Shown one piece after another: positions 6,993-30,341 of a stretch of 33,174 nucleotides of DNA; position 1 is the stretch's first letter, and each line of letters opens with the position of its first letter. This DNA is from Candidatus Woesearchaeota archaeon (lineage in GTDB: Archaea > Nanobdellota > Nanobdellia > Woesearchaeales > GW2011-AR4), in the NCBI GenBank assembly GCA_002686855.1, contig NYYQ01000032.1, forward strand, positions 1 to 33,174, in the 5' to 3' direction. The position numbers and the translations under genes were made by a program. Below the pieces are notes generated by a model. That model had not been told where the DNA came from and ran no database searches. It saw only the letters and a list, made by a program, of their open reading frames with translations.

Positions 6993-7255
6993 CATGTTAG
7001 AATAATATTGTGCTATCACGTTTTTAGTTAACGCTTTTATCCCTATTTGTGGTAGTCGTAAAGAATAACAACATGGGACTCAAATACAGTCATTTGCTTT
7101 GTAAATGCCCTATTCCGAAAGGAAATTTTCACACTCAGTATGGAAATTCCCTCTCCAGTCACTTTTCGTCCATGTTATTCTTTACTCCATGGAAAGTGTT
7201 AACCAGTTTCGTGATGTTAACCAGTTTCGGGATAACAGACATGTTAGAATAATAT
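6993..7255. mobile_element. Candidate non-autonomous inserted element flanked by 16-bp direct repeats
   Basis: CATGTTAGAATAATAT at 6993-7008 and 7240-7255; 231-bp interior holds a 16-bp inverted repeat (7058-7076/7170-7185) and a 15-bp tandem repeat. Confidence 0.5.
7197..7229. repeat. 15-bp tandem direct repeat, period 18
   Basis: TGTTAACCAGTTTCG at 7197-7211 and 7215-7229. Confidence 0.9.
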
Positions 7256-7900
7256 AAACCTTTTTCTTGCTTTTTGCCTTACTAGTGTTTTAATCCTTTC
7301 TTCCATTTCATTGCTGTTTTCAAACTGCTTTTCTTTTTCTCTGAACTCTTTTGTATGGTGATAAGAGCGTCCGTTTTTGCTATGGAATTTATGCTTTTTA
7401 TGCAATATCTCATGATACATTACATAATCTAATACATCCATGTCAGCTTGAAGAATCTTGCTTATGGATATTGCGTCAGAACCATATTCATATGTTCCTA
7501 AGCGCCTTATTGAATCATGCCATTCCAGGTTTGGTTTTTCTATTAAGCCAAAAAAATAATTTTCATTAATTCTGTTAAAAGAATCTTCTAATACTGGATC
7601 GGTCTTTGTTTTTGGAACAGCAATATGTATCTTTTTCATAAAGCTGTTATAGAGGTCAATATTGAATGTATTTTTCTTTTCTTTGAATATTTTTAGCAAC
7701 AATCCTTGCAGAAGGCCTATTTGTATTTCTCTAGAAACACGCTTCCATTTTTTGCTTAAATTAAACTCGAAAAAGTTTTTCCTATATTTCACATTCGCAT
7801 TATAGGGTTTGAATCTATCTGTGTACTTTATGCTGAAATTGTAATCTTTTATATTTTTATCTGGAAACAAATCTTCAAAGGCATCAGTTATTATTGGCAT
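7244..7900 (-). CDS. SprT-like/zinc metalloprotease family protein
   Basis: VMYHEILHKKHKFHSKNGRSYHHTKEFREKEKQF: HExxH with following His-rich segment. Confidence 0.7.
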   Translation of the reverse strand: MPIITDAFEDLFPDKNIKDYNFSIKYTDRFKPYNANVKYRKNFFEFNLSKKWKRVSREIQIGLLQGLLLKIFKEKKNTFNIDLYNSFMKKIHIAVPKTKTDPVLEDSFNRINENYFFGLIEKPNLEWHDSIRRLGTYEYGSDAISISKILQADMDVLDYVMYHEILHKKHKFHSKNGRSYHHTKEFREKEKQFENSNEMEERIKTLVRQKARKRFILF

Positions 7901-8027: not shown

Positions 8028-9428
8028 ATGTCAATTTTTGATGTAAACAAACTTTCAGATCAAGAGAGACTCCTATTATTTTATTGGTCTGAAGTTAATA
8101 AATATATCGGGCGAGATATTAGCACTATTTGGACAGAAAAGGTTCAGAGAGATTTCTTTAATATGCGAACTAGTGCAAAAAGAATTGAATTCTTACTTAA
8201 GCATTTGTGTGATAATCATTACATTGATAAGAGTAAATTCGCGAATGAGCTTATGCATATTGAGTTGCTAATTAGTCATTTGAGTAAAATTAAACCTAAG
8301 CGTAAATGGATTAGGAAGATATATTCTGATTTAGAATTAATTATTGCAGATGTTGGTTCTAGCATAAAGGAAACAGCACAAACTACTAAGAAATTTGGTA
8401 CAGGTATTAGCAGAAGAACTTTTCTTAAGCAAGCTACTGCTGCAGGAGTTATTGCTGCGAGTCCTTTTGGTGGTGCTAAGGCATCTGGAAGATTTTTTAC
8501 TGGTAGAGAATGGATTAATAAATTGAACAGTATTGGGCTAAGATCTATTAAAAGTCCCTGGTTGTCGAATAATCCTAAGGCTCCTACTATCATCATGCTT
8601 GAAGATGTGCATGGCAGTCCTCAAGAGGAATGGGATCAAATACGATTATTATATACAAAAGCTAATGTTGTTTTATTTGGTGTTGAAGGTTGGGCTGGTC
8701 ACGAAATCGATAGAAGCAGGGGTAGAAGGGTCTTGAATGCGGAAGTAGAACTAGTCAAAATACTTTTAAAATATGAAAGAAAAGGTTCTTTTCAGGTCAT
8801 AGGCCTTGAAGATGTGAATCTTCAATTTGTTTCCTTAGAAAGACATTTTGCGGTGTATTCTTATTTTATTAATGTAGCAAGAGATCAGTTAGTTGAAGTT
8901 GGATTTTCTGTTAGACAATTTCAGAAATTTTTTGATCTAATAGCGGTTATTATTGATGAAAAGTCCATGAAAGAAGATAATCATTTGAAGGTTAAGAGTA
9001 ATAGGGATTTTAGTAAACTTATAAGGTGGGTCGAGAGACAAGTTTCGTATCCACGAATTCAAGATATGCTAAAAAAAATAGGAAACTATTTAATGAACCT
9101 GATAGAATCTATATGGGAATTATATGGAATATATCCTCCTTCTTATTCTGACTATATCAGATTGTCCAATATGGTTATTAAAAAGCATTCAAAAATTGTA
9201 AAATCTTTTTCTAAAATAAATGATTTAGCAAAAATACGGGCACTTATAGAAAATGACCCTATTTGGGTTGGAGCTAGGAATGAATTTGCGGCTGAAAAAT
9301 TTATAAATGAGATGAGAAAAAGAAAAGCCAATGTGGCAGGAGTTGTTTTTGGTAAAACTCATCTTGATGGTTTGAGAAGTTCAATATGGAATAAGACCAA
9401 TGGAAATATTAATATCCTAGTTATCTAG
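8028..9428 (+). CDS. Tat-motif protein with EreA/ChaN/TraB-TIKI-like domain
   Basis: Internal SRRTFLKQATAAGVIAASPFGGAKA; then IIMLEDVHGSPQEEWDQI, VVLFGVEGWAG, VIGLEDVNLQ, RNEFAAEKF, VVFGKTHLDGL. Confidence 0.65.
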   Translation: MSIFDVNKLSDQERLLLFYWSEVNKYIGRDISTIWTEKVQRDFFNMRTSAKRIEFLLKHLCDNHYIDKSKFANELMHIELLISHLSKIKPKRKWIRKIYSDLELIIADVGSSIKETAQTTKKFGTGISRRTFLKQATAAGVIAASPFGGAKASGRFFTGREWINKLNSIGLRSIKSPWLSNNPKAPTIIMLEDVHGSPQEEWDQIRLLYTKANVVLFGVEGWAGHEIDRSRGRRVLNAEVELVKILLKYERKGSFQVIGLEDVNLQFVSLERHFAVYSYFINVARDQLVEVGFSVRQFQKFFDLIAVIIDEKSMKEDNHLKVKSNRDFSKLIRWVERQVSYPRIQDMLKKIGNYLMNLIESIWELYGIYPPSYSDYIRLSNMVIKKHSKIVKSFSKINDLAKIRALIENDPIWVGARNEFAAEKFINEMRKRKANVAGVVFGKTHLDGLRSSIWNKTNGNINILVI

Positions 9429-9557: not shown

Positions 9558-12182
9558 TTATTTTACCTCATACCTTAATATAGCGGCTACTTTCCCAATA
9601 TCTTTTAACTGGATGCCTTCCCTGGTTTCTATGGAAATTATTTTCACATCTGTTCCCATGAGGTTTGCTTGTTTTTCAAATTCCTCAATTTTTTTGTCTT
9701 CCAATTCTTCTGATATCAACAATGTTTCAACAGCACCCATTTTTAGGTTTTTCATTACTTCTTCCGTACCGTAAGAAACTATTCCTGGCTTTGTCGATAA
9801 TAATTCAAAAAATCTGTTAACAATCTTTTTTTCTTCTATTACATCCTCTTCTGCAAGCACATCCTGGCTTTTTTCTAATAATTCCTGCAATCCAAATTCT
9901 CCAGTATAAGATAAATCCTTTATAGCAAGGATTTTATTTTTTACATCTGCAGTTATATAACCAGAATCTATAAAATCATATTTGGTAGGGCCTGGACCAC
10001 CAACAATTATACCTTTCAAGTTTTTGTCTTTGAGGAATTTTTCTTTTAGGTATTCGGCTACTTTCTTGAAATGATCTTTTTTTGCGCCTTCTCTTAGACG
10101 CTCGAATCTGGCTGAAGAATTGTGGACAAAAATTCCATTTGCTATGAAATTTTGATTTTTTACAGAAATATCTATCATGTCTACTTTTTTGCTAGTTACT
10201 TCAATTTTTGTTATTTGAACTGGAAGAATTGGATAGTTATAGATATCTTCTAATTGCTTAAATAGTTTTTTGTCTTTTATGCATGATAAAATTGATTTTT
10301 TGAAAGTTTGTTTACTCATCATTCTTTCATTTCTAAAGAAACTGTTTACTTTAGGAAATAACTCTAAATTGTAACCCGCTTTTTCTATTATCTTTCTGAT
10401 TTTTTTACCTGGAATTATTATTTGCCTTACATAGCTAGTATCAGATTTATTCTTTAGAACTAGGTCAAGAATAGAAGATTTTCTAGAGGAAGTAAACCCA
10501 ATGCATTTTTTAAATTGTTTTAAAGATTCTTTTTCAGTTATTGATAGAGTAAATCTATGATTATCTGAATATGGATTTTTTCTATTATCATATTCACAAA
10601 AAGAAGAAATGATGCCAAATCTCAATAAGACCATTTGCATTTGCTGAATTATTAATTTATTATTAATTCCTATACCAATCCCCCTTTCAAGATTCGCATA
10701 ACCTTCAGCATCGAATAAACCTTTGAGAAATGAAGCAACAATTTTGTTTCTAGATTTCAAAATTTTTCCCGGTATTTTTGAATTCAATGCCTTTTTAATT
10801 TCTGGAAATTCATTTGAGATAAGCCTTACTAGAGGTCTACTGGTGAATCTTGTCTGATGATAATTTTTACTTTTTCTGAACCTATAACTAGAGCTTAAAT
10901 TAAAAAATTTATCAAAATTGTTTTTATAATCTAAGCAAACTTGCTTATCCTGTTCGAAGAGTGTTATTCTGTCAGTTTCTGCTGAGCCATCACCCATAAA
11001 ATAGCCAAGAAATTGAGCAAAATCTTCATTAACTTCTTTAGGAAGTTCAATATTCTTATATAAGTAAGGTTCACAAAATTTATGTAAAAACTCTTCATAG
11101 TTTAAATTTAAAGAATTACATAATTTTTCTAATAATTTCCCATTAATATTTCTTTTGCCTAATTCAATAACAGATATCGCTGTTTGAGTTACTCCAAGCA
11201 TTTTTGCAAACTGCTTTTGATGCAATTTTTTCTTCAATCTTTCCTTTTTTATTATTTCCTTTCCTTTTTTATTAATTTTAAATGAATTGTAGTATCTTAA
11301 GGAATTCAGATTTTGTGTCTGCCCACCTATGTTTATTTTTTCTGGCATAATTAAGGAATCTCCTTCTTTTAATTCTTCAGCAGCTTTTTCAATAATCCCA
11401 TTATCACTAACTACAAAAAACACGTGGTCTTTCGAAGCTTCTATTTCCAGACGAGGATTTTTAGTAACAATTTTATGAATCTGATTCTTCTTTATACTCC
11501 ACTTATTTGTTATGTTTGAATTCCTAATTGAGTGATTGTTTGTAATCATACTCTTGACTATGTGGGGATTATGAACATTCTCAATTCTAGGAAGAGAACC
11601 ATCAGATAATTGAACTAAAGAATTAGATAAAATACATTGCCCTCCGGCACGTGTCTTTCCAGGAACTTCAGAATGGGTCTTTAGCAATGGTATTATTATT
11701 TTGCCTTTTAAGTATGCAATAATTGCATCTCTTCTGTCAACAATAACAAGGCCATATACTTCTTTGGTATCAAGCATATCTCTTAACAGGTCTAATACAA
11801 ATTCCTTATCACATCTATAGATGCGAGTTTTTAACGGAATAGGGGGCTCAACACTCCAGACTTTGAAATCCTGCTGGCCTTCACGCTCTGCAACATTTCC
11901 TGAGAAAACAGCCAAGCCATTTTCAGGGGTTCTTTTGTATAACCTTAAGTGTTGAGTCATTTTTTCCAGAGCATCTATAACATTTTTCCTTGTAGAAGCT
12001 GATTTTATGTTTGTTGCAGTGCCCTTTTCCTGATCAAGATGATTTATTATCTTTGTCATCTCATAGCCTTGGGGGATATAAACAGAAACTAGCTCTGTAT
12101 GACGGCCTCTATGTGTTTCTAGTTCTTTAATGAGTTTCTTCAATTGGTGTTTTTGTTTTTCAGTTATTGACATTTTAACCAC
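9558..12182 (-). CDS. prf1: Peptide chain release factor aRF1 containing an intein
   Basis: NIKS motif (TATNIKSASTRKNV), YRCDKEF, GKTRAGGQ, SARFERLREGAKKDHFKKVAEYL, GAVETLLISEEL, AAILRYEV; interrupted by intein blocks. Confidence 0.93.
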   Translation of the reverse strand: MVKMSITEKQKHQLKKLIKELETHRGRHTELVSVYIPQGYEMTKIINHLDQEKGTATNIKSASTRKNVIDALEKMTQHLRLYKRTPENGLAVFSGNVAEREGQQDFKVWSVEPPIPLKTRIYRCDKEFVLDLLRDMLDTKEVYGLVIVDRRDAIIAYLKGKIIIPLLKTHSEVPGKTRAGGQCILSNSLVQLSDGSLPRIENVHNPHIVKSMITNNHSIRNSNITNKWSIKKNQIHKIVTKNPRLEIEASKDHVFFVVSDNGIIEKAAEELKEGDSLIMPEKINIGGQTQNLNSLRYYNSFKINKKGKEIIKKERLKKKLHQKQFAKMLGVTQTAISVIELGKRNINGKLLEKLCNSLNLNYEEFLHKFCEPYLYKNIELPKEVNEDFAQFLGYFMGDGSAETDRITLFEQDKQVCLDYKNNFDKFFNLSSSYRFRKSKNYHQTRFTSRPLVRLISNEFPEIKKALNSKIPGKILKSRNKIVASFLKGLFDAEGYANLERGIGIGINNKLIIQQMQMVLLRFGIISSFCEYDNRKNPYSDNHRFTLSITEKESLKQFKKCIGFTSSRKSSILDLVLKNKSDTSYVRQIIIPGKKIRKIIEKAGYNLELFPKVNSFFRNERMMSKQTFKKSILSCIKDKKLFKQLEDIYNYPILPVQITKIEVTSKKVDMIDISVKNQNFIANGIFVHNSSARFERLREGAKKDHFKKVAEYLKEKFLKDKNLKGIIVGGPGPTKYDFIDSGYITADVKNKILAIKDLSYTGEFGLQELLEKSQDVLAEEDVIEEKKIVNRFFELLSTKPGIVSYGTEEVMKNLKMGAVETLLISEELEDKKIEEFEKQANLMGTDVKIISIETREGIQLKDIGKVAAILRYEVK
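10119..11636 (-). mobile_element. Intein (506 aa) with HTH and LAGLIDADG endonuclease
   Basis: Starts CILSNSLVQLSDGS immediately after GGQ; ASKDHVFFV block B-like; XRE HTH (QKQFAKMLGVTQTAISVIELGKR); LGYFMGDGSAE and LKGLFDAEGYA; ends NFIANGIFVHN|S. 1518 nt = 506 codons exactly. Confidence 0.93.
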
Positions 12183-22861: not shown

Positions 22862-23734
22862 TCACAAACTGCTTAATTTCTTAACAACAATAACAAAATA
22901 AATCTTGCTCCAGGCAAAAATCAATAGCATTAATATTAACCCAATAAATAGCAAAAATAAATTTATTTCTACTAAATAAGAGATTAATACTAAAGACAAT
23001 ATTATTAAAATTATAATTATCAGATAAGAAACTATTATTGAAATAAAATTCCTTGTTCCTATTCTAAATGTTTTTTTTACTAAGGTTTTGAATTCTTCAA
23101 TTTTAAATTTATTGAGTAATGGTATGACAATGTAAATAAAATAAATGGCTATTATTGCAACTATAAGCAAAGGTATAAAATTTGCTGGCTGGGTTGATAA
23201 AAAACCGCTGAAAGAAATATTTAAGAAATTATATGCAAATATGAATAATGACAAAGATAAGATCAAGGATACTATGAAAAATCTTGGCAGGTATGATAAG
23301 ATGTTTTTTAATGAGAACAATTTTTTATTCTTTTCGAGAATGTTTGAGGCAAAGTACCATATTAATCCATTGATTATTGTGAAGATGATAAAAATATAAA
23401 ATAAAAGGAATAATAGGTTTTTTTTCATTGCTTCATAATTCCTGCTTATTAATAATGGATTTTCTCCAAGAGGGTTTTTTTGCTGCAAAACATCAAATTT
23501 AGCTTTTTCAACATCTAGATTCAATGCATCCATATACTGCATAATTTCAACAGTGCTTTCCAATATCTTTGAAACATAGAACGAACTGACTATTAAAATT
23601 AAAAAGAAAAATAAAATTTGAAGGATAAATATTAATAAAAATATTTTTTTGTTTTTTGATATAGCTAAAAAAGATTCTTTTAATGAATTTGTTATTATGG
23701 AAGGCATTTTATTGATTTTACTCCCAGTAACCAC
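22862..23734 (-). CDS. Multi-pass membrane protein, paralogous to the partial CDS at the right edge
   Basis: C-term IPLLNKFKIEEFKTLVKKTFRIGTRNFISIIVSYLIIIILI..AWSKIYFVIVVKKLSSL resembles ORF 32776.. Confidence 0.8.
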   Translation of the reverse strand: MVTGSKINKMPSIITNSLKESFLAISKNKKIFLLIFILQILFFFLILIVSSFYVSKILESTVEIMQYMDALNLDVEKAKFDVLQQKNPLGENPLLISRNYEAMKKNLLFLLFYIFIIFTIINGLIWYFASNILEKNKKLFSLKNILSYLPRFFIVSLILSLSLFIFAYNFLNISFSGFLSTQPANFIPLLIVAIIAIYFIYIVIPLLNKFKIEEFKTLVKKTFRIGTRNFISIIVSYLIIIILIILSLVLISYLVEINLFLLFIGLILMLLIFAWSKIYFVIVVKKLSSL

Positions 23735-26700
23735 AGCACACTAAACCCTTCTCTTCTGGACAGCTTACAGTTTGAGGATTTATTCTTATTGACCTATCGC
23801 ATGTGCTGGTTGCTTCACATTTTCCCACTCTATTAAATTGTTGCCCATCACCTGGGCCGCATCTTACTGTAAATTCTTCTTCTTTTTCAGTTCTTTGGCC
23901 CATATCATCATGGGCTTCAATATTAATTTTATATTCTCCTGCTTGGTAATCAGTTAGTTTTATATCATCAAATAACTTGTTATTAATTGTTATAGTGCAT
24001 TTTATTTCTTTTTTGTCATTGGCTTTGCAATCTTTGTTATATTTATCTAATTCTTTTCCCTGTCCTTGTGGAGGAACAAGCCAATATTGTATTTGATTAA
24101 GCTTTTTATCTTTTCCTTCTTTATTTTCTCCCTGCGCAGCAACAGTGACTGTTAATCCTATTTCATCATTTTCCGGGTTTAAATATCTTTTATCATCAAA
24201 TTTAAAATCTATTTCAGGAGGCATTATTTCTTCTGCTTCAGTTCTTACTTGAAGAATGATCTTTTCTTTTTGCTCTCTGCCCTGATACTCTATCACTTTG
24301 CTTTTTTCATAAGTTTTGCAATTATTGGAGCCTTCATTTGCTTCGTATAATGACAGCCATAAATTCCAATTCTCAGAGCCTCCTTTTCTTGGCAATGTAA
24401 CTCTATATTCAATTTCTTCTAACTTATCATTAAATCCAACATTTTCTATCTTGAACTTTATTTTTTTATTTAGCAACTCAACAACTGGTTCACCACCTTC
24501 AAATGTCAGACTTCCAATTAGTTTAATTTGTTCACCACCTATTTTTATTTTATCTACACTATTTTCTCCTAAATCTATTCCATTAATACCATCTGCATTA
24601 ATGAACTTAAGTGTTGTCGAATAACCCCACTCATCATTCTCTGTGATAAATTCATGTTCTAATTTTAAATTTTCTATTAATTCTTTACAGTCTTTATCTT
24701 TAATCTTATTTTCATTTATTCTTGAATCTCCACAACCATATGGTTCAATCTCTGGTTTTGATTTGGATCTTGCAAACTCTAATTTATCTATTATTTCTTT
24801 TTCATAAGTGTACTTTCCATCAAAGTCTATGCGGATTACCTTAGGTTTATCAACTTTACTTTCCCCTTTTTTTTCTTTGTCAACACTAACTACCAGGCAT
24901 TTTAGACCTGAATCCTGGCTTTTGCGGACATCAACCTTTAATTTTAAAGGCTTGCCTATGAATACGGACACTTTTTTCTTTTCCGGCTTTTTATCATTTA
25001 TTTCAATGTCTAACATGTTTGCTATTCCTTTTGTGTTAAAGAAGCTTAGGCCTCCACTGCATTCAAATTCACCAGACTCTACATTCGCATGACACCCAGT
25101 TATGTCTCTTACACTTTTGTCTCTTAGGGGAAAATAAAAGATACCATCTTCATGTCCCGGAGGGAAGCATGTTTTTCTTGAATCTCCTCTCAGCTTTCTG
25201 TCAGGAGTTAATTTAATCTTAAGATGGTCGTATCTGTAAAAAGAAGGAATAATCTTGTTTTCACTGCCCTGTATAAATTGGTTTTGCTTTATTTTTCCTC
25301 TTGAGTTAAATAGTCTTGCTGTTTGTTCTTGGGTTAGTTTGCTATTTAAGCAATCACAATTACTTCCGTCTGGAGAGTTCACAGCGTCACAGCGAATTCC
25401 TTTTGTAGCTAAGCCAACAGAAGATAGAGGATCAATAAATTCCCCTTCACGCTCAAGCTCATTTCTGGTTACGCATGAAAGATCAACAGTATATTTTTCT
25501 AGATCACATCCTGGGTTTATTATCCATGATGCGCTATAATCATATCTTGCTTTATTATTAGTTGGGTCAATTGTCAGGTATTCTCTTGTTCCTGTTGTTG
25601 CTTGCACAACACTTGCGAATGTTTGCGAATAAGCGGCATCAATAACATTTTGCAAGGTAAGGTCCCAATCATAACCAAAAGCTGCTAAACATAGTTTTCT
25701 TGCGACTTCTCCTGTACTGGCTCCAATAAGGTTGTTCAGTTCTGCGTTTCCATATTCTTCTGTAAGCTCTGATTGTGTATCAGCAACGCTCTGGAATACA
25801 CTTTTGAAGCCACCTCCTACAGTTCCAAAGAAGTCCTCTTCTCTGCTCATGCCAAGAGAGAAAGGCGAGCATGAATTGGAAAAAGCGCTTATGACCTGCC
25901 ATATGCTTGAGCATACATATCTGGTAAATATTTCCCTGCATGCTAATGCATCTGAAGTTCCTGTTTCCCTTATATCTATCAAGCATCTGCCTAAAGCGCT
26001 CTGGAAATTATTTATCATAACAAGCCTTTGTTGGATACCACCAATGTTTGCGCATTGGAATGCAGCAATATGCTCTTGTCTCGAGTCTATTGTAACCAGG
26101 TCTCCAGTTTCTCCTTTTGGGACATTAGCATCATAAAACCAATTGTCCTGCCCAAAACATGCTGTGAAATCTCTGCCTTCTATGTACCTGTAGGGGTTAT
26201 ATTTTGTGTGGACTGCGGTTTCTTTACCTTCTTCTGCTTTTGATTTAGTTGTATAGCCTTCTTTCCAGTATCTATATGACCATTTCATGTCTGCAAATCC
26301 TGTTTTTGTGTCTGCGTCTTTTTTAGGGCATTCTTCTGATTTGCCTTTTGACTGGAATGCGCAATCTTTTTTACCTTCTTCTGCTTCTGGATTTTTATAT
26401 GGATTTATATCTTCCCAATCATAATAAATACTTGGAGGCTCATCTTCTACATTGATGCAGCAGCATTCATACCTTGATTTTGGGTCATTGCTTACTACAC
26501 TCTCACTTCTAAGGGCATTTCTCACATCACTAGGAGCTTTATCTGCTTTGTAAAAGCAATCTTGAGTATATCCACTAGGTGTTGCTTTACTTATATCCTC
26601 TTTGCCTCCTTTTGTTTTGGGTAAATTTACGCAATTATTTTTTGGTATGCATGACCACCATTCTTTCTTACTGGATTTGACGCTTTTTTTCTTATTCCCA

Positions 26701-29700
26701 TAATAAGTTAAGTCTTTTCCTTCTAATCCACAAACTTCTCTGCATGTTTTTGGTTGATAAGTTAGGTATTGGGTTTCTGTCTGCTTGATGACATAACCTA
26801 CCGTTTTTTTACTATTACCTGCCGTGTATCTCACATTATATAAATCGTTGACTCCTACAGGCCCTCCTAATTTATATAGAACTCTTTCTTTACCTGGCTG
26901 TTCTTGTACCTCAAGACAAGTATCTTCTAAGCCATAACGATCTGGTTTTATTTCATATTCTTCTTTTGCAATTGTTCTGCATTTTACTGCTCTTAATGGC
27001 TGGCCTCTAACATTTTCATCAGTAGCACAAGTCTGGCCTTCAAGAACCCTGTTAAATATTTTTTTATCTTCCAGTCCTTCTGTCCATGCTGAAGGTGTCT
27101 TGTGTCCAAAAACCCTGTCGCATGTAAATCTGTAATAGCCGTACATGTCTGCTTCTCTTTCCCAAGCATCCGCTACATTTGGGAAGCATCTTTCAAGGTC
27201 TTTATCGCTGAAATCCTTTAGATTTATTTCGCCAAGCGATCCCAGTATTAGCTCCTTTAGTTCTTCTCCAGTAGCTTCGGAAGAAATGCCTTTTTTGGCA
27301 ATACTTAAAGCAACCTTGTTGCAATAATCTTTATCTTCACTATTCTTTGGCTTAAAGTCTAGGTTTAGGTCATTAATATCAATGCCTGTCAGCTTTTTGG
27401 CAGCAAACGTATTTTCTTCAAAGAAGGTAATGAATCTTCTGTGGATCTGGATTGCGAACCTTATCATGAAGCTTGAGACACATCCAAATGCAGCATATTC
27501 AAGGACTTTGGTTACTTGTGTGTTGACTTTGTTTATTGTTTCTACCGAATCCCTGAGGAAATCAACAAGATCATACAAAACCCAGTCAGGCAATACTTTT
27601 CTAGGATCTATAAGGCTGTTATCCAGGACATATGTTACCTCATGGCAGGTTCTTTGTACTTCTTTTACCTCTTTTCCATCAACATCATGGGTGTATTGTA
27701 TTACAAATTTCATTGGAAAAGTAAGCTCATTACTTACAGAGTTAAAGAAATTCTTCCAGTCATTTTGCAGGAACCGGTCCATGCCTTCTGCCCTGTTTAG
27801 TTGGATACTGGTATAGGATACAGTGCCGTCATCATTAACTATTGTAGTGCCACTGGAAGGCATTATCTGGCAGCTTATGTTGAATCTTTTGTCACCTAAA
27901 AGCTCTTTTCCAGAACAGGCCCTGCTTATACTCATACCTGTTACTTTTCCATCTTCGCCTCTGCCAATATAAGAATAGTTAATGAAAAAATTAATGATTT
28001 CCTTGTTTTCAGCCAATCTTTGCGGGCTGATCAATGCAGGGCTTTGGTATTCTGTTAATGGTATTACATCCCAGCTCTGATTTCCAGACCAACATGTTCC
28101 AATCTGTAGTTTATGCTCCTTTGCATTTCTTAAACCAACTTCGTCAGTAGCTATGAAAATAAGCCTTGCTTTTCTTTCATCTTTAAATCCTTGTCTCCTG
28201 TCCATTTCGCTTGCAGGAATTTGCGGTATTTTCATGCCTCCGCTTATTGTACTTGTTAAATCAACATCCTCAAATTCAAAATTTCCACTGCTGTCTGCGG
28301 TTGTTGAGAAATCAGCTCCTGTTTTGCAAAATTGTGATCCTCCGAGTTTAAGTGAGCATTTTGCATCTAAGTCTGTCTCTTGTATGCTTGTTAATTTATC
28401 TGACATTGCGGTAATGCTAAAAGACTTGTCTAAAGCTCCAAAAGGTGTTCTGTCTATGAACAAATGCACTTTAGCGTTTGGATCAGTAATGCCTTTTATG
28501 TCAATCTCATTTGCATAGTTTTCAAAAATAAGCTGATTAGATGGGGGGCTAGTTATCTTTATATTTGGTTTTTTTGTGTCAAGCCTTATTGTTTTTTCAA
28601 TCACAACCCTGTTTTTTGCCCTGTCTAAAATTTCTATTACTAGTACATATTTTCCGTCTCTTGAAAGCTTTAGTGATTGTGAAAATGAGGCGCTGGTGTT
28701 GATTGTTGTTGTGGGTTTTACAATGATGAGTTTGTCTATTGGCTGTGGTTTTGGTATGTCAGTTCTTCCATTGGCTGTTTTTGCTGCAGCAGGCTCTGAT
28801 TTATCACTTTCCCTTCCAAATTTATTCACAGCACTTACCCAATAAACATATTCCCTGCCTTTATTTACTAATAAATCTGTATAGGCATTGTATGAGATTG
28901 ATTGGGTGATTGCAATAGGACCTACATCTTTCCTGTATATTATATAATGACTAAAGTCTTCTTCAGTGGTTTCATTCCATTCAAGCTTTATGGAGTCATT
29001 TTTTGCTACAGCTTTTAACCCAATAATTTTTTCTAGTTTTGTATCTGCTCCCAATCTCAAGAAAAAGTTTATGAAAACAAGCTCGTCTACTGTTCCAACA
29101 ACAGTTAAATTCTTTTTTGACGTTGCACCGGGGATTGGGTTTAAAACTACTATGGGCTTTTCTGTGTCAACACTTATGCGGAAAGTACTTTCATTTTTAT
29201 TGCCGGCCTTGTCAATAGCTAATAATTTTATTACATTCTCTTTTTGCAATTGTATATTAAAAAACCGGAAGGTTCCTTCTGATGTCTCTGAGCTGTCTAA
29301 TGCCCTTACTGGAAAGTTCATATCATTGACAAACAGCTTTATCGTTGAAAGTGGTTTTGTTGTTCCGGTAATGTCAATCTGCTTTTTATTGAAGAATTTC
29401 GGTATTTGAGTATCAATCTTTGGAGGGTTTATATCAATTCCAACCTTAAAAGTGGAGACTGATGAATCTATGCAGTTATTGTCCTCGTCGCATGACGTGA
29501 CAACAAAACTATAGGTAGCTTTTTCAAGATTTGCTAAGCTAATGGAATGGTTTTTTACTAAACCTACTGATTTCTTTTCCTTGTCTGATGTTTCCGTATA
29601 ATAATGAACAATTGATGCGCTGTCTTCATTTGTTGACCAGGTTATAGTTGCACCGTCCTCCTTGATATCGATTACTTTAACATTGCTTATTACTGGTTCT

Positions 29701-30341
29701 AAAAGATCCAAGGCCTCTGTTGTAATGGTTATTTCATTGGAATATTGCCCTTCATTTTCAGATGTATCAACAGCTGAAACTTTATATGAGTAAGTTGTTC
29801 CTGGCTCAAGGTTATTGCCAGTAAAAGTCGTGTCTGTTGTATTAAGTATATTTATGTTGTCCCTGTAAATGCTGTAATGGCCTAAATCTGAGGCATCTGA
29901 CTGCTGCCATGATATGGTAATTGAGTTTCTGGTTATGCTTACAATGTCAATTCCTGTTACTTTTTCCGGAGGTGTGTTATCCTTGGTTGTAAAGGAATAA
30001 AATTGTCCATTGTTATTATCAACAACGTACTGGCCATTGATGTTAGATGATTCTATCTCAAAGAAATATGTTGCTTCAGAATCCATGCCTTGTATTAACT
30101 GATTGTGCTCAAAGATATATGTACTATGTCTGGATGAAAATCCCAGATTTTGGTCAGGTCCGTATCTTACATTTCCATCTGCAACCTCATCTGTGAACCA
30201 TTTTATCCTTGCAGAGTTTGAGGTTATGTCTGTTACATCTACATTGGATATGCCAAGAGCATAAACAAAATTTACAGGATATAATATAGTCAGCTCTAGT
30301 AAAAACAATGCAATGAATTGCATTAAAATGGTTTTTTTCAT
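23718..30341 (-). CDS. Giant secreted/surface protein with FN3 and Ig-like domains and Cys-rich region (2207 aa)
   Basis: Signal peptide; FN3 repeats (PPEKVTGIDIVSITRNSITISWQQ...YSYKVSAVDTSENEGQYSNEITITTEA); Ig-like segments; Cys-rich centre and C-terminus. Confidence 0.9.
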   Translation of the reverse strand: MKKTILMQFIALFLLELTILYPVNFVYALGISNVDVTDITSNSARIKWFTDEVADGNVRYGPDQNLGFSSRHSTYIFEHNQLIQGMDSEATYFFEIESSNINGQYVVDNNNGQFYSFTTKDNTPPEKVTGIDIVSITRNSITISWQQSDASDLGHYSIYRDNINILNTTDTTFTGNNLEPGTTYSYKVSAVDTSENEGQYSNEITITTEALDLLEPVISNVKVIDIKEDGATITWSTNEDSASIVHYYTETSDKEKKSVGLVKNHSISLANLEKATYSFVVTSCDEDNNCIDSSVSTFKVGIDINPPKIDTQIPKFFNKKQIDITGTTKPLSTIKLFVNDMNFPVRALDSSETSEGTFRFFNIQLQKENVIKLLAIDKAGNKNESTFRISVDTEKPIVVLNPIPGATSKKNLTVVGTVDELVFINFFLRLGADTKLEKIIGLKAVAKNDSIKLEWNETTEEDFSHYIIYRKDVGPIAITQSISYNAYTDLLVNKGREYVYWVSAVNKFGRESDKSEPAAAKTANGRTDIPKPQPIDKLIIVKPTTTINTSASFSQSLKLSRDGKYVLVIEILDRAKNRVVIEKTIRLDTKKPNIKITSPPSNQLIFENYANEIDIKGITDPNAKVHLFIDRTPFGALDKSFSITAMSDKLTSIQETDLDAKCSLKLGGSQFCKTGADFSTTADSSGNFEFEDVDLTSTISGGMKIPQIPASEMDRRQGFKDERKARLIFIATDEVGLRNAKEHKLQIGTCWSGNQSWDVIPLTEYQSPALISPQRLAENKEIINFFINYSYIGRGEDGKVTGMSISRACSGKELLGDKRFNISCQIMPSSGTTIVNDDGTVSYTSIQLNRAEGMDRFLQNDWKNFFNSVSNELTFPMKFVIQYTHDVDGKEVKEVQRTCHEVTYVLDNSLIDPRKVLPDWVLYDLVDFLRDSVETINKVNTQVTKVLEYAAFGCVSSFMIRFAIQIHRRFITFFEENTFAAKKLTGIDINDLNLDFKPKNSEDKDYCNKVALSIAKKGISSEATGEELKELILGSLGEINLKDFSDKDLERCFPNVADAWEREADMYGYYRFTCDRVFGHKTPSAWTEGLEDKKIFNRVLEGQTCATDENVRGQPLRAVKCRTIAKEEYEIKPDRYGLEDTCLEVQEQPGKERVLYKLGGPVGVNDLYNVRYTAGNSKKTVGYVIKQTETQYLTYQPKTCREVCGLEGKDLTYYGNKKKSVKSSKKEWWSCIPKNNCVNLPKTKGGKEDISKATPSGYTQDCFYKADKAPSDVRNALRSESVVSNDPKSRYECCCINVEDEPPSIYYDWEDINPYKNPEAEEGKKDCAFQSKGKSEECPKKDADTKTGFADMKWSYRYWKEGYTTKSKAEEGKETAVHTKYNPYRYIEGRDFTACFGQDNWFYDANVPKGETGDLVTIDSRQEHIAAFQCANIGGIQQRLVMINNFQSALGRCLIDIRETGTSDALACREIFTRYVCSSIWQVISAFSNSCSPFSLGMSREEDFFGTVGGGFKSVFQSVADTQSELTEEYGNAELNNLIGASTGEVARKLCLAAFGYDWDLTLQNVIDAAYSQTFASVVQATTGTREYLTIDPTNNKARYDYSASWIINPGCDLEKYTVDLSCVTRNELEREGEFIDPLSSVGLATKGIRCDAVNSPDGSNCDCLNSKLTQEQTARLFNSRGKIKQNQFIQGSENKIIPSFYRYDHLKIKLTPDRKLRGDSRKTCFPPGHEDGIFYFPLRDKSVRDITGCHANVESGEFECSGGLSFFNTKGIANMLDIEINDKKPEKKKVSVFIGKPLKLKVDVRKSQDSGLKCLVVSVDKEKKGESKVDKPKVIRIDFDGKYTYEKEIIDKLEFARSKSKPEIEPYGCGDSRINENKIKDKDCKELIENLKLEHEFITENDEWGYSTTLKFINADGINGIDLGENSVDKIKIGGEQIKLIGSLTFEGGEPVVELLNKKIKFKIENVGFNDKLEEIEYRVTLPRKGGSENWNLWLSLYEANEGSNNCKTYEKSKVIEYQGREQKEKIILQVRTEAEEIMPPEIDFKFDDKRYLNPENDEIGLTVTVAAQGENKEGKDKKLNQIQYWLVPPQGQGKELDKYNKDCKANDKKEIKCTITINNKLFDDIKLTDYQAGEYKINIEAHDDMGQRTEKEEEFTVRCGPGDGQQFNRVGKCEATSTCDRSIRINPQTVSCPEEKGLVCCGYWE

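What the first reader, a model, noticed from the sequence alone, without database searches (positions are those of the whole stretch)
10119..11636. Intein inserted exactly after the catalytic GGQ of archaeal release factor aRF1
The sequence reads GKTRAGGQ|CILSNSLVQLSDGS ... NFIANGIFVHN|SSARFERLR. The coding insert is 1518 nt (506 codons) in frame, with Cys1, terminal HN and Ser+1. Removing it restores GGQSSARFERLR. GGQ is the peptidyl-tRNA hydrolysis motif of class I release factors, so unspliced aRF1 should be inactive. Termination would then depend on splicing, possibly redox- or temperature-gated. I do not recall aRF1 as a standard intein host, but that needs a database check.
Basis: partly seen in the sequence, partly recalled or inferred. 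Interest (0 to 1): 0.85.

Follow-up and report, generated by a model that had tools for sequence, protein, structure and literature searches.

The report
Intein in an archaeal release factor
A self-splicing, mobile protein insert sits directly behind the catalytic glutamine of the only translation-termination factor found in a Woesearchaeota-like archaeon, so the cell should be able to end protein synthesis only after the insert cuts itself out; the same insert, in long and short forms, occurs at the same position in about one in seven sampled genomes of the phylum.

Summary
It is a LAGLIDADG homing intein: Pfam Intein_splicing E=1e-19, two LAGLIDADG_3 stretches, one XRE-type HTH; the splicing residues are invariant in 26 full-length relatives. 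The same site is occupied in 52 of 371 sampled genomes of the phylum (33 with endonuclease, 19 mini-inteins). The nearest aRF1 relative (88% identical exteins) has an empty site. Intein and host trees disagree, and in one family intein dS is well under extein dS: recent homing. Splicing should be essential; redox or temperature gating has no support. No held paper names aRF1 as an intein host, but key surveys are not held. Verdict: a new allele of a known kind, ordinary in mechanism, remarkable in place. Two side findings may matter more: (1) one genus encodes, downstream of aRF1, a free-standing Hint protein related to the mini-intein, stripped of its splicing residues yet under purifying selection; (2) one family has aRF1 with GGW or GGF instead of GGQ, together with apparent loss of the GGQ methyltransferase.

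The parts
9558..12182 (-). aRF1 precursor gene (archaeal class I release factor interrupted by an intein); GTG start at 12182, alternative ATG at 12173
   Evidence: ORF; TIGR03676 aRF1_eRF1 2.6e-117; eRF1_1, eRF1_2, eRF1_3
11637..12182 (-). N-extein (182 aa), ends with the GGQ codons at 11637-11645; NIKS motif present
   Evidence: eRF1_1 in Pfam
10119..11636 (-). intein, 506 codons, Cys1 ... His505-Asn506
   Evidence: Intein_splicing PF14890 1.3e-19
11322..11636 (-). N-terminal part of the Hint splicing domain (about residues 1-105; boundary approximate)
   Evidence: alignment with mini-inteins of the same site; A1 profile match
11424..11435 (-). block B, Ser-Lys-Asp-His; Ser and His invariant in 26 relatives
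11088..11252 (-). XRE/Cro-type helix-turn-helix (HTH_3), residues 129-183, accessory DNA-binding domain
   Evidence: Pfam HTH_3 1.3e-13; PDB C.BclI 2b5a 1.7e-5; absent in 4 of 26 full-length relatives
10983..11009 (-). first LAGLIDADG motif LGYFMGDGS (acidic residue Asp216)
   Evidence: Asp in 24 of 26, Glu in 1
10701..10727 (-). second LAGLIDADG motif LKGLFDAEG (acidic residue Glu311)
   Evidence: Glu or Asp in 26 of 26; LAGLIDADG_3 4.2e-19
10119..10256 (-). C-terminal part of the Hint domain with blocks F and G (MIDISV ... NFIANGIFVHN); start approximate
   Evidence: TIGR01443 intein_Cterm over cut-off; D489, H505, N506 invariant
9561..10118 (-). C-extein (186 aa) beginning with Ser+1 (SSARFERLR...)
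   Evidence: eRF1_2 and eRF1_3

Best explanation
A class 1, LAGLIDADG homing intein in aRF1 immediately after the catalytic GGQ. The precursor is translated as one 874-aa protein. The Hint domain folds, Cys1 attacks the Gln-Cys bond (N-S acyl shift), the N-extein moves to Ser+1, Asn506 cyclises and releases the intein, and an O-N shift leaves a native GGQ-SS bond, giving a 368-aa active aRF1. Until then aRF1 cannot place GGQ in the peptidyl-transferase centre. The released intein, using its HTH and its LAGLIDADG domain, cleaves intein-free aRF1 genes at the strongly conserved GGQ-Ser coding sequence and is copied in by repair. Shown here: precise insert, domain make-up, invariant splicing and endonuclease residues, same-site occurrence, empty sites, tree conflict, lower dS than the exteins, purifying selection. 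Inferred: that it splices, that the unspliced form is inactive, that the endonuclease cuts this site.
For: Domain hits. Splice junctions intact and catalytic residues invariant in 26 full-length relatives. 52 of 371 genomes occupied, in about 23 of the 99 families of the sample. Empty sites in the same family, including G104 with 88% extein identity. Intein tree against aRF1 tree: inteins of G149 (f69), G101 (f65) and G019 (f66) nest among those of the window's order although their exteins do not. In family f25, intein dS 0.08-0.20 against extein dS 0.38-0.43, with dN/dS 0.10-0.21 in the endonuclease region. Mini-inteins at the same bond keep the splicing residues.
Against: No splicing or cleavage experiment. 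The block-F His of many inteins is Gln here (NQNF). The window genome is 79% complete, so a second aRF1 cannot be excluded from it alone.
Confidence: 0.92

Rival explanations
1. A regulatory intein: splicing is gated by a condition (redox, temperature, ribosome state), so the cell uses it to control translation termination.
For: Position is ideal for a switch (after GGQ). Mini-inteins that cannot home are kept across many genera, e.g. in the 13 members of family f65 outside genus g163 that have a match.
Against: No Cys in the three residues before Cys1; close relatives do without the intein; full-length forms look like active homing elements. Retention of mini-inteins is also expected simply because precise loss is rare.
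Confidence: 0.06
2. A dead intein: Hint no longer splices, and aRF1 is a pseudogene or works unspliced, termination being done by another factor.
For: None beyond the lack of an experiment; a further match to the C-terminal half of aRF1, perhaps pelota, exists in the genome (C8).
Against: Splicing residues invariant; exteins under strong purifying selection, dN/dS 0.06-0.09; no second aRF1 seen in near-complete carriers such as G002; pelota lacks GGQ (PMC2613156).
Confidence: 0.015
3. Assembly or binning artefact joining an intein to aRF1.
Against: Same junction in about 50 genomes, mid-contig in most, including single-contig G074.
Confidence: 0.005

Closest known systems
Archaeal LAGLIDADG inteins with accessory DNA-binding domains (TliVMA, PI-TkoII; PMC8966425)
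   Same: Hint domain split by a LAGLIDADG endonuclease with a helix-turn-helix accessory domain; V-ATPase intein chains 7qsu and 7qss and PI-PkoII 2cw7 match by sequence
   Different: Host protein is aRF1, not VMA or PolB; the HTH is of XRE/Cro type and lies before the endonuclease motifs
Endonuclease of PDB 1dq3 (PI-PfuI, Pyrococcus furiosus ribonucleotide reductase intein, name from own knowledge)
   Same: Best solved relative of the endonuclease part, 5.6e-14 over residues 242-399
   Different: Host is ribonucleotide reductase; different site
Class 1 mini-inteins (gp41-1 6qaz, DnaX 7cfv, DnaB 1mi8)
   Same: Profile of the aRF1 mini-inteins matches them nearly end to end, 8.9e-15 for 6qaz; Cys1, block-B His, His-Asn
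   Different: Host and site; Ser+1 nucleophile in aRF1
aRF1/eRF1 family (TIGR03676)
   Same: Exteins are ordinary aRF1 with NIKS and GGQ
   Different: Interrupted after GGQ

Membership tests
Intein (class 1) | In-frame insert between conserved parts of a host protein, removal restoring the host sequence | tested here: met
   (empty sites GGQ|S)
Intein (class 1) | Nucleophile Cys/Ser at position 1 | tested here: met
   Cys1 in the window and in every intein listed (that extraction asked for Cys; no other residue was seen at an occupied site)
Intein (class 1) | Block B Thr/Ser-x-x-His | tested here: met
   Ser68 and His71 in 26 of 26
Intein (class 1) | C-terminal His-Asn followed by Cys/Ser/Thr+1 | tested here: met
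   HN|S in the window and relatives
Intein (class 1) | Hint profile match | tested here: met
   PF14890 71 bits, cut-off 35.8; TIGR01443 22.6 bits, cut-off 15.6
Intein (class 1) | Autocatalytic protein splicing | not testable with these tools
   needs expression and SDS-PAGE or mass spectrometry
LAGLIDADG homing endonuclease | Two LAGLIDADG motifs with acidic residues | tested here: met
   Asp216 and Glu311; two LAGLIDADG_3 stretches
LAGLIDADG homing endonuclease | Mobility into empty alleles | tested here: met
   indirect only: tree conflict and low intein dS
LAGLIDADG homing endonuclease | Cleavage of the empty aRF1 site | not testable with these tools
   needs a cleavage assay
aRF1 | TIGR03676 over cut-off, NIKS and GGQ motifs | tested here: met
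   392 bits, cut-off 234.7; NIKS and GGQ
Split (trans-splicing) intein | Two separate genes inside contigs | tested here: not met
   one ORF in the window; the two apparent splits elsewhere (G167, G328) lie at contig ends

The most novel reading that the evidence does not exclude
The aRF1 intein lineage has been domesticated at least once: in one genus a splicing-dead, free-standing relative of the aRF1 mini-intein is encoded downstream of aRF1 and is kept by selection, perhaps because it still binds aRF1 near GGQ and acts as a regulator or chaperone of termination; the long-kept mini-inteins inside aRF1 of related genera may be kept for a related reason.
Probability: 0.25. Interest if true: 0.8.

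Novelty: new member of a known kind. Interest (0 to 1): 0.57.

Why it matters
It adds, as far as the held literature shows, a new intein host: the single class I release factor, interrupted next to the residue that takes part in peptidyl-tRNA hydrolysis. Every stop codon in the cell, including that of the aRF1 gene itself, would then depend on protein splicing. The set of full-length, mini, empty, re-invaded and possibly domesticated states at one site in one phylum gives a natural series for testing the homing cycle, the fate of inteins that lose mobility, and whether an intein at an active site can be co-opted. GGW/GGF release factors would bear directly on how far the catalytic Gln is needed.

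Tried and rejected
Natural split intein: G167 and G328 looked split, but both halves end at contig ends. In-frame stops inside the intein: the G054 break lies at a run of N in the assembly; for G183 the ORF holding the whole aRF1 is open. Spread to Methanosarcinales (L013 title): its DNA is 100% identical over 5.6 kb to G245 of Nanoarchaeota, so it is a title or binning matter. Viral carriers: no relative in viral contigs; phage hits are only distant LAGLIDADG regions of other proteins. Structure: two AlphaFold jobs gave unusable models, so no fold search was made. Literature: ten searches, none naming aRF1/eRF1 as an intein host; the prokaryotic intein survey of 2016 (10.1093/molbev/msv271) is not held. 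GGW outside f64: the one further pattern match (G297) lies in a CTP synthase-like ORF. A search outside the phylum with the intein profile was not possible.

Full report
What is there. The window is part of a Woesearchaeota-like genome (G000:C32, 79% complete; nearest named records are Woesearchaeota and Nanoarchaeota MAGs). On the minus strand, 9558-12182, one ORF of 874 aa encodes aRF1 with an insert of exactly 506 codons (10119-11636) between the Gln of GGQ and the following Ser. The protein scores 392 bits against TIGR03676 (cut-off 234.7); the insert scores over the cut-offs for Intein_splicing, LAGLIDADG_3 and HTH_3.

Anatomy. From the N-terminus: Hint N-part with Cys1 and block B (SKDH), an XRE/Cro-like HTH, a LAGLIDADG endonuclease with two intact motifs (LGYFMGDGS, LKGLFDAEG), Hint C-part with blocks F and G ending NFIANGIFVHN, then Ser+1. 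In 26 full-length relatives Ser68, His71, Asp489, His505 and Asn506 never vary; the acidic residues of the endonuclease are Asp or Glu in 25 of 26 and 26 of 26. HTH accessory domains are known from TliVMA and PI-TkoII (PMC8966425), so the domain plan is not new. Four of the 26 lack the HTH.

Distribution. A profile of mini-inteins with 15 aa of flank on each side (A1) was run on 371 genomes of the phylum. Counting matches that begin in the N-flank, 52 genomes carry an intein at this bond: 33 with an endonuclease (421-510 aa where measured) and 19 mini-inteins (130-145 aa). They fall in about 23 of the 99 families of the sample. Many others have an empty site (in one search as matches that stop at residue 182 and resume at 688). 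In the window's own family 4 of 15 genomes carry it; the nearest aRF1 (G104, extein identity 88%) is empty.

Mobility. The intein tree and the aRF1 tree disagree: G149 (f69) sits inside a supported group of inteins (100/95) from f1, f25, f26, f49 and f54, and G101 (f65) and G019 (f66) also group with the window's order, although their exteins belong elsewhere. G288 and G019 inteins are 65% identical with exteins at 48%. In the f25 set, synonymous divergence of the intein is 0.08-0.20 against 0.38-0.43 in the exteins, and dN/dS in the endonuclease is 0.10-0.21. This is what recent homing by a working endonuclease would leave. No cleavage was tested.

How it works. Standard class 1 splicing is the only mechanism the residues suggest; it yields GGQ-SSARF, the native loop. 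GGQ lies at the end of a protruding arm of the M domain, and by analogy with bacterial RF1 is placed in the peptidyl-transferase centre (PMC2613156), so a 506-aa insert there should block release; that is inference. Regulation by redox or temperature is not supported: no Cys among the last three N-extein residues, empty sites in close kin, and marine names on several carriers.

A free-standing relative. All four genomes of genus g163 (family f65) that were searched carry, downstream of aRF1, a 130-aa ORF homologous to the aRF1 mini-intein over its full length. The gap is about 45 nt in G110, about as short in G378, 1.7 kb in G065 and 5 kb in G101. Cys1 is Ala, block-B His is Gln, block-F Asp is lost, and His-Asn is replaced by SE, TE or NE. 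They form one group (100/100) nested with mini-inteins of f65, f67 and f76 (95/97), on a long stem. Codon positions 1/2/3 differ by about 0.29/0.23/0.53 and dN/dS is about 0.14-0.31 (dS partly saturated), so they look like constrained proteins, not debris. Two of these genomes have an intein-free aRF1 (G110, G065); two carry a full-length intein in it (G101, G378), which looks like re-invasion. What the protein does is unknown; a role with aRF1 is a guess from its position.

Release factors without the glutamine. In family f64, aRF1 reads GGW in G033, G059, G317, G379 and G226 and GGF in G366, but GGQ in G010 and G381. G033, G059 and G379 carry a larger intein and G317 a mini-intein at the same bond; G226 and G366 have none. 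Only one aRF1 was found per genome. The archaeal HemK-related methyltransferase family TIGR00537, taken here as the enzyme that modifies the GGQ glutamine (own knowledge of Mtq2/HemK2; Mtq2-Trm112 in PMC7708063), passes its cut-off in 23 of 24 GGQ genomes tested and in none of the six GGW/GGF genomes (Fisher about 1e-5 by hand, not corrected for kinship; G317 and G226 have weaker matches at 78 and 76 bits, cut-off 87). The literature calls GGQ universal in a/eRF1 and cites a report that a Gln mutant of human eRF1 keeps some activity (PMC2613156). A DNA-pattern scan found no other GGW aRF1 in 371 genomes; GGF and others were not scanned.

Novelty and limits. No paper in the held open-access library pairs inteins with aRF1 or eRF1 as a host, but the main prokaryotic intein survey is not held and nr could not be searched, so 'first report' is not claimed. 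By kind it is a new allele of a known class of element. AlphaFold models were too weak to use.

Noticed in passing
L109 (G110), L110 (G065), L111/L115 (G101), L114 (G378): Free-standing ~130-aa Hint protein downstream of aRF1 in genus g163, related to the aRF1 mini-intein, with Cys1, block-B His, block-F Asp and C-terminal His-Asn replaced, yet dN/dS well below 1; a possible domesticated intein.
   Followed up: partly
L084 (G226), L086 (G366), L089 (G033), L088 (G059), L107 (G317), L131 (G379): aRF1 with GGW (five genomes) or GGF (one) in place of the catalytic GGQ in family f64, together with absence of an over-cut-off HemK-related methyltransferase (TIGR00537).
   Followed up: partly
L129 / G101:C50:15164-15274: A truncated (45-aa frame) second copy of the free-standing Hint directly downstream of the intein-bearing aRF1.
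   Followed up: no
window 7244-7900 (-) and 8028-9428 (+): A YgjP-like metallopeptidase gene (below the Pfam cut-off) follows aRF1 directly in several relatives (G183, G054, G179); in the window a 466-aa ORF with a predicted TAT signal lies between the two.
   Followed up: no
L064 (G180:C56:52557-53078): The HemK-related methyltransferase gene (TIGR00537) lies directly upstream of aRF1 in G180.
   Followed up: no
G000:C55 (L002, L004): Other intein-like matches in very long ORFs (2232 and 1635 aa) of the window's own genome.
   Followed up: no
L013 (JAFCBX010000040.1): Record titled Methanosarcinales carries DNA identical to G245 of the window's phylum; probable mislabelled or contaminated bin.
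   Followed up: yes
window 23718-30341 (-): A 2207-aa ORF that looks like a large secreted or surface protein with repeated stretches.
   Followed up: no
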